Notes under the pieces: model-generated
Databases searched by the model: none
Seen by the model: the letters and a program-made list of their open reading frames with translations, nothing else
What the model was told of the DNA's origin: nothing
Position numbers and translations under genes: made by a program
In this document: one piece after another, positions 56,314-57,567 of the stretch
How positions within the stretch are numbered: position 1 is the first letter of the stretch
Layout of the letters: each line of letters begins with the position of its first letter
Assembly: GCF_016863275.1 (NCBI RefSeq)
Contig: NZ_BOOO01000042.1
Coordinates: 1 to 64,000, forward strand
DNA: 64,000 nt
Direction: 5' to 3'
DNA from: Planotetraspora mira
GTDB lineage: Bacteria; Actinomycetota; Actinomycetes; Streptosporangiales; Streptosporangiaceae

Positions 56314-56343
56314 TTGACGCAAGATCCGCTGGTCGGCTGTACT
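56314..56343 (+). promoter_or_regulatory. Possible promoter of the conserved-protein/tRNA-like RNA locus
   Basis: TTGACG (56314-56319) and TGTACT (56338-56343) are spaced by 18 bases, 72 bases upstream of the GTG start. The -10 match is weak. Confidence 0.35.
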
Positions 56344-56415: not shown

Positions 56416-57147
56416 GTGACCAAGCTCAACCAGATCCTCGCCGTGGAGAAGGGCGTCAAGGCCGACGCTCAGCGCAAGGTGACCGACGCCTACCACACCA
56501 TCCAGAAGAGTCCCCTTCTGTCGGGCATCTCGCGGTCGTATCAGCCGATCGACGACGAGGGCGAGCAGCTTCCGCCCGAGTCGACCAGGGTGCAGGTACA
56601 GGGTGGCAACGTCCTGAAAGACGTTGGGGTCGCGCTGACGCGGTTGTTCGACGTGACGGCGACGAAGGACTGGACGAACTGCTCGGCCAGGGCCAGCGTC
56701 ACGGTGGACGGTGAGACCCTCCTGGACGATGTCCCGGTCACCTACCTGTTGTTCCTGGAGAAGCAGCTGGTCGACCTGCACACGTTCATCAGCAAGCTGC
56801 CCACACTGGACCCGTCCGAGACGTGGACGCTCGATGAGAACACCGACACCTGGCGCACGGAGCCGGTGAAGACGACGCGGACGAAGAAGGTTCCGCGCAA
56901 CCACGTGCTCGCCGAGGCGACCGACAAGCACCCGGCCCAGGTGCAGGTCTACAACGAGGACGTCGTCGTCGGTTACTGGACCAAGGTCACCTTCTCCGGT
57001 GCGTTGCCGCAGCGGCGTGTCAACGAGCTTCTGGGCAGGGTGCAGAAGCTCCAGGACGCGGTGAAGTACGCCCGTGAGGAGGCCAACGGGACGGAGGTCG
57101 TCGACCGCCGGATCGGTGACGCCGTGTTCGGTTACCTGCTGGGGTAG
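56416..57147 (+). CDS. Conserved protein of unknown function next to the tRNA-like RNAs
   Basis: The 243-residue soluble protein starts MTKLNQILAVEKGVKADAQR at GTG 56416 after GGAAGGG. I recognise it only as a conserved actinobacterial hypothetical. Features seen: a positively charged N-terminal helix region, PPESTRVQVQGG, VTATKDWTNCSARASV, VTYLLFLEKQLVDLHTFI, VKTTRTKKVPRNHVLAEATD, and the C-terminal RVQKLQDAVKYAREEANGTE helix. No catalytic motif, TROVE, RtcB or ligase signature is visible. The basic KTTRTKKVPRNH patch would suit nucleic-acid contact. Its stop is 10 bases before the start of the structured RNA region, so co-transcription is likely. Confidence 0.88.
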   Translation: MTKLNQILAVEKGVKADAQRKVTDAYHTIQKSPLLSGISRSYQPIDDEGEQLPPESTRVQVQGGNVLKDVGVALTRLFDVTATKDWTNCSARASVTVDGETLLDDVPVTYLLFLEKQLVDLHTFISKLPTLDPSETWTLDENTDTWRTEPVKTTRTKKVPRNHVLAEATDKHPAQVQVYNEDVVVGYWTKVTFSGALPQRRVNELLGRVQKLQDAVKYAREEANGTEVVDRRIGDAVFGYLLG

Positions 57148-57157
57148 CCCACAGACC

Positions 57158-57176
57158 CCCATCCTGCGTGGATGGG
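57158..57176 (+). other. Stem-loop opening the structured RNA region
   Basis: CCCATCC pairs with GGATGGG around TGCGT, 10 bases after the protein stop. A second hairpin (TGCGC/GCGCA, 57177-57191) abuts it. The sequence ACAGACCCCC before it recurs exactly before the terminator at 57491-57500. Confidence 0.7.
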
Positions 57177-57193
57177 TGCGCAAGGAGCGCAAA

Positions 57194-57320
57194 CTGAAGA
57201 TGAAGCTCAGCCTGAACGACGGTTTCAGCGGAGGTTCGATTCCTCCCCCGGGCACGCGGGCCCGGGTAGCCCAATTGGCAGAGGCAGCCGGTCAAACTCA
57301 GACTCTCGCTCCAGATTCAG
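57194..57320 (+). ncRNA. Circularly permuted tRNA-like RNA, element 1 (Y-RNA-like)
   Basis: In order: CGGTT (57220-57224), 5-base variable segment, T-arm GGAGG-TTCGATT-CCTCC (57230-57246), acceptor 3' strand CCCGGGC (57247-57253), ACGCGG, acceptor 5' strand GCCCGGG (57260-57266; 7 of 7 pairs), T8-A9, D-arm with AATTGGCAG loop containing the GG pair (57269-57285), and AGCCG (57286-57290) that pairs with CGGTT as an anticodon-stem equivalent. Outer sequences are complementary (AGCCTGA/TCAGACT with one mismatch; CTGAA/TTCAG). A tRNA would have the reverse order of halves. Bacterial Y RNAs have this layout; the ends given are limits of the outermost pairing, not mapped termini. Confidence 0.6.
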
Positions 57321-57346
57321 CATCGCCGTCGAGTGCCGGATCGACC

Positions 57347-57455
57347 GGGAGTGGACTGTGATTGTTGAGATGCCGGTTCGAGTCCGGCGCGCGGCTCCAA
57401 GCATGCCGCGGTAGCTCAATGGCAGAGCGCACATCGTGAGGACTGATCCACTCTC
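57347..57455 (+). ncRNA. Circularly permuted tRNA-like RNA, element 2 (Y-RNA-like)
   Basis: T-arm GCCGG-TTCGAGT-CCGGC (57372-57388) is followed by acceptor 3' strand GCGCGGC (57389-57395), TCCA and AGCAT, acceptor 5' strand GCCGCGG (57405-57411; 6 of 7 pairs), T8-A9 and a D-arm GCTC-AATGGCA-GAGC (57414-57428). The ends are joined by a 9-bp helix, GGGAGTGGA (57347-57355) with TCCACTCTC (57447-57455), one G-U pair. An anticodon-stem equivalent may be ACATC with GATTGT (one bulge). The encoded TCCA after the acceptor strand is tRNA-like. It is followed by a strong terminator. Confidence 0.65.
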
Positions 57456-57493
57456 TTAAACGCCGCCGGCACCGTGATGTGGCGGCATCGACA

Positions 57494-57526
57494 GACCCCC
57501 GGGACATGGACAGGTTCCCGGGGGTC
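57494..57526 (+). terminator. Intrinsic terminator of the RNA locus
   Basis: GACCCCCGGGA pairs perfectly (11 bp) with TCCCGGGGGTC around an 11-nt loop and is followed by a TTTT run at 57532-57535, rare in this GC-rich window. Confidence 0.88.
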
Positions 57527-57567
57527 GCTCCTTTTCCGCGGGGTGCCTCCAGCTGAGCCGTGTCTCA

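What the first reader, a model, noticed from the sequence alone, without database searches (positions are those of the whole stretch)
57347..57455. Circularly permuted tRNA-like RNA closed by a 9-bp end helix (element 2)
Seen directly: a canonical T-arm (TTCGAGT loop) precedes, rather than follows, a canonical D-arm (AATGGCA loop), and the intervening acceptor strands GCGCGGC and GCCGCGG pair at 6 of 7 positions around a loop containing TCCA. The two outer ends pair over 9 bp. U8, A14, G18-G19, T54-T55-C56 and A58 equivalents are all present. Known: bacterial Y RNAs (YrlA) bound by Ro60 have a tRNA-mimicking module whose ends leave through the anticodon-stem position into a long helix. Inference: this is a Y-RNA-like or permuted tRNA-like RNA. 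No Ro60 or RtcB gene is in the window.
Basis: partly seen in the sequence, partly recalled or inferred. Interest (0 to 1): 0.9.

Follow-up and report, generated by a model that had tools for sequence, protein, structure and literature searches.

The report
Double tRNA-mimic RNA with protein partner
Downstream of a gene of unknown function lies a gene for an RNA with two heads shaped like transfer RNA but with their parts in reordered sequence; RNA and protein are inherited together in soil bacteria and in many phages, and look like a new RNA-protein partnership related in design, but not in partner, to the Y RNAs bound by Ro60.

Summary
57347-57455 is the second of two circularly permuted tRNA-like heads in one RNA region (about 57158-57530) downstream of a DUF7873 gene (56416-57147). 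In 30 whole RNAs (window included) 54 of 72 pairs change on both sides, including all 9 of the closing helix. RNA and DUF7873 are inherited together: the same 93 of 199 Streptomyces genomes carry both, 106 carry neither; likewise 11 and 49 of 60 genomes of kin. The pair recurs in many phages; bacterial copies nest among viral ones. The heads resemble Ro60-bound Y RNA (YrlA) but score far below Rfam's cut-off, are usually tandem in actinobacteria, in phages often encode NCCA where a tRNA ends (61 of 70 in one group; 2 of 20 Ro60-linked heads), and show no association with Ro60 in Streptomyces (p 0.20), though they do in the 60 kin. DUF7873 has no confident PDB fold match. Best reading: a phage-born RNP whose heads engage tRNA-handling enzymes or nucleases. 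Fold and co-inheritance are well supported; protein-RNA contact and function are inferred.

The parts
56314..56343 (+). promoter-like site TTGACG-18-TGTACT upstream of the DUF7873 gene
   Evidence: read directly; a TTGAC-type pattern lies within 250 nt upstream in 21 of 159 loci versus 3.4 expected from other windows. The consensus scanner called no promoter here, so weak.
56416..57147 (+). DUF7873 protein gene (243 aa), the partner
   Evidence: Pfam PF25283, 393 bits, cut-off 27; AlphaFold pLDDT 93.9, pTM 0.68; no PDB fold match at E<=0.001
57158..57176 (+). 5' hairpin of the RNA region (7 bp)
   Evidence: read directly
57193..57215 (+). stalk 1, 5' strand
   Evidence: consensus fold, pair counts; 78-82% of cells paired in its helices, weaker than stalk 2
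57230..57246 (+). head 1 T-arm
57247..57253 (+). head 1 acceptor 3' strand
   Evidence: 7 of 7 pairs with a both-sided change
57260..57266 (+). head 1 acceptor 5' strand
57269..57285 (+). head 1 D-arm
   Evidence: 3 of 4 pairs never vary
57298..57321 (+). stalk 1, 3' strand (conserved linker CTCAGACTCTCGCTCCAGATTCAG at 57297-57320)
   Evidence: 16 of 16 pairs of these two helices with a both-sided change in 30 sequences; 15 of 15 in 43
57372..57388 (+). head 2 T-arm
57389..57395 (+). head 2 acceptor 3' strand
   Evidence: 7 of 7 pairs with a both-sided change
57396..57404 (+). head 2 closing loop TCCAAGCAT, with NCCA at tRNA positions 73-76
57405..57411 (+). head 2 acceptor 5' strand (G1)
57414..57428 (+). 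head 2 D-arm
57447..57472 (+). stalk 2, 3' strand, with conserved TTAAACG in the internal loop
57494..57526 (+). strong hairpin followed by GCTCCTTTT: likely transcript end
   Evidence: read directly; analogous hairpins seen by eye in homologues; not called by the terminator scan

Best explanation
A two-component ribonucleoprotein cassette of phage origin. Component 1 is a structured noncoding RNA with one or (here) two permuted tRNA-like heads, each elbow plus acceptor stem, standing on long stalks in the place of the anticodon arm. Component 2 is DUF7873, encoded next to it. Shown by comparison: the fold, the tandem order, the strict protein-RNA co-inheritance in Streptomyces and in kin, no association with Ro60 in Streptomyces, the NCCA signature in phage copies, and (on a midpoint-rooted tree) bacterial copies nested among viral ones. 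Inferred: DUF7873 binds the stalks, whose internal loops carry conserved bases; the heads are read as tRNA ends by tRNA enzymes (U at -1, G at 1, NCCA), perhaps cut by RNase P and 3' enzymes into a nicked, CCA-ended tRNA mimic; the particle works as a tRNA decoy or adaptor that occupies or recruits tRNA-handling enzymes, most plausibly nucleases attacking tRNA during phage-host conflict. I give the RNP part about 0.85 and the decoy/adaptor function about 0.35.
For: Covariation: 29 of 31 pairs with both-sided changes, 95.0% of cells paired versus 69.2% shuffled and 41-46% slid; all 61 thinned loci plus window 32 of 33 pairs, 92.2%; whole RNA 54 of 72 pairs, 91.0% versus 74.7% shuffled and 36-43% slid. 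Not tandem tRNA genes: acceptor strands pair 6.96 of 7 in permuted order (the scanner asks for 6) but 4.29 in ordinary order, close to 4.05 for strands of different loci, 94 loci. Co-inheritance: same 93 of 199 Streptomyces genomes, same strand and 19-344 nt downstream in the 30 of 93 measured; 11 of 11 versus 0 of 49 kin genomes. No other recurrent neighbour: next family in 5 of 80 loci. RNA as its own gene: upstream of the protein with a terminator-like hairpin between in L172, on the opposite strand in L170. NCCA: 61 of 70, 50 of 100, 26 of 141 heads in three groups; tRNA genes of the same loci 83 of 120, 26 of 302, 2 of 14; Ro60-linked heads 2 of 20. U(-1): 72 of 100 and 40 of 70 phage heads, 59 of 141 bacterial, against 20%, 25% and 15% T in those loci. 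tRNA genes in 46 of 80 actino-type viral loci versus 11 of 80 bacterial. Phage origin.
Against: No transcript or binding data. NCCA is not enriched in bacterial copies over local tRNA genes (26 of 141 versus 2 of 14) or over Ro60-linked heads (p 0.53), so the CCA argument rests on phage copies, which are not independent of each other. U(-1) is also found in 8 of 20 Ro60-linked heads. The acceptor loop may simply stay closed, as in Y RNA; in bacteria it is short (median 7 nt). In gram-negative-type phages only one head is usual and no common stalk came out of the alignment. DUF7873 of the window is acidic (pI 5.7), not an obvious RNA binder. The tree is rooted at the midpoint, its bootstrap had not settled, and the bacterial side was thinned to 6 rows.
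Confidence: 0.6

Rival explanations
1. An ordinary, diverged Y RNA of the Ro60 system (YrlA) that happens to sit by DUF7873: Ro60 binds the stalk and the heads tether PNPase.
For: YrlA is the best Rfam match (30.3 and 25.9 bits); Ro60 is in the genome; TROVE enriched among 60 kin genomes (9 of 11 versus 11 of 49, p 0.0004).
Against: Below gathering (69); no association with TROVE in 199 Streptomyces (p 0.20); 10 of 11 DUF7873 phage records lack TROVE; strict pairing with DUF7873 instead; the own Ro60 locus has its own heads; Ro60-linked heads have NCCA in only 2 of 20.
Confidence: 0.08
2. A circularly permuted tRNA gene: the transcript is circularised and trimmed to a working tRNA, as in some algae and archaea.
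For: Order T-arm, acceptor 3' strand, often NCCA, acceptor 5' strand, D-arm; U(-1), G1.
Against: No anticodon arm; long conserved stalks in its place; acceptor and discriminator vary without a fixed identity; no RtcB in 11 of 11 DUF7873 phage records; ARAGORN finds no tRNA in the window.
Confidence: 0.04
3. A 3'-UTR element of the DUF7873 mRNA: a tRNA-like structure that controls or terminates expression of its own gene (autoregulation).
For: It lies within 600 nt downstream on the same strand in 147 of 160 loci and in the 30 of 93 Streptomyces measured; no separate promoter seen in the window.
Against: In L172 it precedes the gene with a terminator-like hairpin between, in L170 it lies on the opposite strand; one Streptomyces genome (G577) has only a partial DUF7873 match (profile 73-157) but the RNA at 109 bits.
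Confidence: 0.15
4. The RNP is the attacker rather than a shield: DUF7873 is an enzyme acting on tRNA or aminoacyl-tRNA and the RNA is its guide, antitoxin-like inhibitor or dock.
For: Polar residues N88, T169 and N224 are invariant even with the distant phage proteins, and H172, K116, R220 within the actinobacterial-type set; an unmatched fold allows an unknown activity; patchy occurrence (93 of 199).
Against: No known catalytic signature recognised; no PADLOC match for the two proteins tested.
Confidence: 0.18

Closest known systems
Bacterial Y RNA YrlA (Rfam RF02553) with Ro60/Rsr; crystal structure 6CU1
   Same: tRNA-like domain of D-, T- and acceptor arms, circularly permuted relative to tRNA, closed by a stem of the RNA's 5' and 3' ends (PMC8394870 and PMC11472068, passages read); that the ends leave at the anticodon-stem position is recalled
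   Different: Co-inherited protein is DUF7873, not Ro60; two heads in one RNA here; in phages NCCA at the acceptor end and, in one group, long acceptor loops (median 20 nt); scores below Rfam gathering; conserved stalk loops of its own
Circularly permuted tRNA genes of algae and archaea (PMC3978253, start of abstract in the search listing; details recalled)
   Same: 3' half precedes 5' half; acceptor strands face each other across a loop
   Different: No anticodon arm; stalks and a neighbouring protein conserved
tmRNA and plant-virus tRNA-like structures (recalled)
   Same: tRNA mimicry of elbow and acceptor without a normal anticodon arm
   Different: Not permuted in this way; no mRNA-like part found; different partners
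Phage Y RNA / Ro60-like candidates (Listeria phage CKA15, PMC12282133; jumbo-phage TROVE, PMC7824862; Vibrio phage pir03, PMC7765460; passages read)
   Same: phage RNA plus RNA-binding protein suspected to steer RNA decay or repair; pir03's authors note that several phages were reported to have YrlA
   Different: those rest on Ro60-like proteins; whether any of the phage YrlA reported elsewhere are members of this family was not checked

Membership tests
YrlA (Rfam RF02553) | covariance-model score at or above gathering (69 bits) | tested here: not met
   30.3 and 25.9 bits in the window; 33-38 bits for 4 of 7 phage loci, none in the other 3 at E<=0.05. The own Ro60-linked Y also misses it (43.7 bits), so the cut-off alone is not decisive.
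YrlA / bacterial Y RNA | permuted tRNA-like domain closed by a stem of the RNA's 5' and 3' ends | tested here: met
   covariation; the true RNA ends are not mapped
YrlA / bacterial Y RNA | gene lies by, and is inherited with, Ro60 (TROVE) | tested here: not met
   TROVE on another contig; 49 of 93 versus 46 of 106 Streptomyces, p 0.20; but 9 of 11 versus 11 of 49 kin genomes, p 0.0004; 1 of 11 phage records
YrlA / bacterial Y RNA | bound by Ro60 | not testable with these tools
   needs pull-down
YrlA / bacterial Y RNA | one tRNA-like domain, 90-150 nt (size as stated in PMC8394870, passage) | tested here: not met
   two heads in about 280-370 nt in the window, ends unmapped; 2 heads in 61 of 80 bacterial and 33 of 80 actino-type viral loci. 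Gram-negative-type phage copies usually have one head (66 of 80) and would meet it.
Permuted tRNA gene | T-arm and acceptor 3' strand precede acceptor 5' strand and D-arm | tested here: met
   6.96 of 7 acceptor pairs permuted, 4.29 in ordinary order, 94 loci
Permuted tRNA gene | anticodon arm and product tRNA | tested here: not met
   stalk without anticodon loop; no ARAGORN hit in the window; the product itself is not testable here
DUF7873 (PF25283) | Pfam score above cut-off 27 | tested here: met
   393 bits over 1-242

The most novel reading that the evidence does not exclude
A new class of ribonucleoprotein, spread by phages, in which DUF7873 (unmatched fold) and a CCA-bearing permuted double tRNA mimic form a machine that manipulates tRNA enzymes; the RNA is matured by the host's own tRNA enzymes into a nicked tRNA mimic that looks like a tRNA cut in its anticodon loop, and protects phage or host tRNA from anticodon nucleases or directs repair or decay of cut tRNA.
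Probability: 0.3. Interest if true: 0.92.

Novelty: new variant of a known kind. Interest (0 to 1): 0.82.

Why it matters
It indicates that the Y-RNA design (a tRNA-mimicking head on a stalk) is used outside the Ro60 system, next to a dedicated protein of unmatched fold, in Streptosporangiaceae, Streptomyces and many phages. If the heads carry real CCA ends, it is a natural tRNA decoy scaffold and makes testable whether phages and bacteria use tRNA mimics against tRNA-cutting defences. It also gives a functional handle on DUF7873, for which no paper was found in the held library.

Tried and rejected
Tandem ordinary tRNA genes read across their borders: rejected by the acceptor pairing (still, 14 of 94 loci pair 6 or 7 of 7 in ordinary order too) and by ARAGORN, whose tRNAs overlap the heads in only 2 of 160 loci (its printed locus count of 81 per set is a parsing slip for 80). 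Single-sequence folding: not significant. Ro60 dependence: opposite answers in two samples, the larger and less confounded one negative. Recurrent neighbour genes: none found (ORFs of 130 codons or more with a GC-pattern filter; the DUF cluster itself was called in 76 of 80 loci). Defence-gene library: no match for the two proteins tested. PDB profile search: one hit, E 0.78. Foldseek: PDB nothing at E<=0.001; BFVD one unnamed 275-aa protein at E 2e-4 with low TM. Stalk alignment of gram-negative-type phage copies: no common stalk. Phylum sample for co-occurrence: only 6 of 346 genomes have DUF7873, too few. Loci without the RNA or with weak signal: of 13 viral loci without a scanner hit, 9 have a model match of 50 bits or more, L132 28 bits, L169 15 bits, L135 and L136 none at E<=0.1; 12 of 80 gram-negative-type loci have no head by the scanner; of 11 named phages, 8 have a match of 37 bits or more beside DUF7873, L024 only 19 bits, L022 one about 2 kb away, the Lak phage L026 none. 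Alanine identity G3-U70: rare. A longer acceptor loop as a general mark: not so in bacteria (median 7 nt, against 4-10 nt in Ro60-linked heads).

A4 used the window plus 42 of 61 thinned loci: 14 of the 19 left out have acceptor loops of 22 nt or more, five (L155, L160, L181, L183, L185) were left out without a written reason; with all 61 back in, the result stands. A5 is the window plus 29 of 60 eligible loci after thinning. Head 1 or head 2 was assigned by a rule of my own where only one head was found. The scanner demands U8, A14, GG, TTCRA and paired arms, so those positions cannot be called conserved from it. CCA counts treat related sequences as independent. Matches in 199 Streptomyces were at E<=1e-12 with strict filters.

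Full report
What is there. The window is from a Planotetraspora-like actinobacterium (inferred from the closest named loci: 97 and 99% protein identity to two Planotetraspora). Folding the stretch alone is no better than shuffled sequence (z -1.0), so the case had to be made by comparison.

The neighbour upstream, 56416-57147, is DUF7873 (PF25283, 393 bits). Homologues were found in 11 of 60 kin genomes, the own one included, at least 570 places in a bacterial collection (80 kept), 82 phage records, some of them duplicates, and 257 plus 137 viral stretches from two queries that may overlap (80 kept of each). Downstream of them the same kind of RNA appears: at least one permuted head within 600 nt in 80 of 80 bacterial and 67 of 80 viral loci, two heads in 61 and 33; background 13 in 966 kb elsewhere and 0 in 946 kb shuffled. 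In gram-negative-type phages (label mine, from the query set of Rhizobium, Klebsiella and Vibrio phages) 68 of 80 have a head within 800 nt, 66 of them one; 4 in 317 kb elsewhere and 0 in 626 kb shuffled. Of 11 named phages, 8 have a model match of 37 bits or more beside the gene, one a weak one, one a distant one, and Lak none.

Fold. In 43 module-2 sequences 29 of 31 pairs change on both sides, and 95.0% of cells pair, against 69.2% after shuffling and 41-46% when slid. The structure was predicted on the same alignment, which favours it over the slid versions. The stalk helices, which took no part in choosing the sequences, have both-sided changes at 15 of 15 pairs. With all 61 thinned loci plus the window, 32 of 33 pairs and 92.2%. 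In 30 whole RNAs, 54 of 72 pairs change on both sides, 91.0% paired. Stalk 1 is weaker (78-83% paired in its helices) and partly held by nearly invariant bases. Acceptor strands pair in permuted order (6.96 of 7; 6 were required), not in ordinary order (4.29; strands of different loci 4.05), which speaks against misread tandem tRNA genes.

Partnership. A covariance model of head 2 with its stalk, searched in 199 Streptomyces genomes at E<=1e-12, hits the same 93 genomes that have DUF7873 and none of the other 106. In 60 kin genomes, matches of 81 bits or more occur in the 11 DUF7873 genomes; the best in the other 49 is 55 bits, head only. In one genome (G577) only a partial DUF7873 match remains (profile 73-157) while the RNA scores 109 bits. 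No other gene family recurs beside the pair in more than 5 of 80 loci. In two viral contigs the RNA is upstream of the gene with a terminator-like hairpin between (L172), or on the opposite strand (L170): it can be a gene in its own right. In the window it is probably co-transcribed with DUF7873 and ends at the hairpin 57494-57526 (inference; the site scanner called neither promoter nor terminator).

Relation to Y RNA. Rfam's YrlA matches both heads below its cut-off. The own genome has a Ro60 gene elsewhere with two Y-like heads just upstream. As a control I took 21 Ro60 stretches; 13 gave 20 heads with acceptor loops of 4-10 nt, NCCA in 2 and U(-1) in 8. The DUF7873 heads have NCCA at positions 73-76 in 26 of 141 (bacteria), 50 of 100 (actino-type viral) and 61 of 70 (gram-negative-type viral); at the seven other offsets tried in the last group CCA is found in 0 or 1 head. 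In both viral groups this exceeds the tRNA genes of the same loci (26 of 302 and 83 of 120; Fisher p 1e-17 and 0.005; sequences not independent). In bacteria it exceeds neither tRNA genes nor Ro60-linked heads. Acceptor loops are short in bacteria (median 7) and actino-type viral copies (8) and long in the gram-negative type (20). U precedes position 1 in 72 of 100 and 40 of 70 viral and 59 of 141 bacterial heads, against 20, 25 and 15% T. These are hallmarks of tRNA precursor ends (recalled knowledge of RNase P and CCA ends), so the viral heads mimic the acceptor end too.

Ro60. TROVE is present in 49 of 93 Streptomyces with and 46 of 106 without the pair (p 0.20), but in 9 of 11 versus 11 of 49 kin genomes (p 0.0004); close kinship explains the latter at least in part (inference). 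Of 11 DUF7873 phage records, one (Rhizobium phage RHph_TM30) has TROVE and none has RtcB.

Protein. AlphaFold gives a confident helix plus long beta-hairpin fold (pLDDT 93.9, pTM 0.68) without a match at E<=0.001 in the PDB. N88, T169 and N224 are invariant across the 14 most diverse proteins aligned. That it binds the RNA is inferred from co-inheritance only.

Origin. In a tree of 137 thinned proteins the bacterial rows (6 after thinning) lie within viral rows (midpoint root, bootstrap not settled). tRNA genes lie in 46 of 80 actino-type viral loci and 11 of 80 bacterial ones. Together with patchy presence in Streptomyces this suggests a phage-born cassette taken up by actinobacteria.

How it works (inference). 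The heads present elbow and acceptor of a tRNA without an anticodon; the stalks take the place of the anticodon arm and probably carry DUF7873. The likeliest task is to engage tRNA enzymes or tRNA nucleases as decoy or adaptor; an RNA-decay adaptor like Ro60-Y RNA-PNPase (PMC8394870, passages read), self-regulation, and an enzyme-guide role are the main alternatives. For Salmonella YrlA itself, a competitive-inhibitor role against an anticodon nuclease was named as a possibility (PMC7790460, passages read).

In print. Searches for DUF7873 and PF25283 found no paper in the held library. In the listings of the searches around YrlA, permuted tRNA and phage tRNA-like RNA and in the passages I read I saw none describing this pair. 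Some papers predict YrlA in mycobacteria, one prophage or phages (PMC9569102, PMC8190616, PMC7765460, passages); whether those are members of this family was not checked. Chen et al. 2014 and the Y RNA reviews are not held, so some of these RNAs may already stand in their lists. Hence 'new variant of a known kind'.

Noticed in passing
L014:7030-7510 (G000:C20 about 103030-103510): Upstream of the own genome's Ro60 gene there are two permuted heads plus repeated GTGCG...TTACTTC and GATCTCGGG-like motifs, as if several Y-like units stood in tandem.
   Followed up: partly
L092 / G004:C48:60049-60770: The DUF7873 copy of Planotetraspora silvatica matches in two pieces in different frames while the RNA beside it scores 139 bits.
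   Followed up: partly
G577:C1:5682534-5682953: A Streptomyces genome with only a partial DUF7873 match (profile 73-157) that keeps the RNA at 109 bits.
   Followed up: no
L015:1072-1600: Gordonia phage Phendrix carries a tmRNA match (Rfam RF00023, 89 bits) not among the features listed for that stretch; ARAGORN lists two tmRNA genes in the viral loci.
   Followed up: no
L021:4374-5246: A band-7-like membrane protein gene is the next protein gene after the DUF7873-RNA pair in Rhodococcus phage NiceHouse.
   Followed up: no
G005:C72:1062-2129 and G032:C188:481-1394: Clusters of weak matches to the head model; may be tRNA arrays or arrays of permuted heads.
   Followed up: no
L228, L236, L241 acceptor loops: In some gram-negative-type viral copies the CCA is part of a small hairpin (CCAAC...GTTGG) capping the acceptor, as if the CCA were masked until cut.
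   Followed up: no
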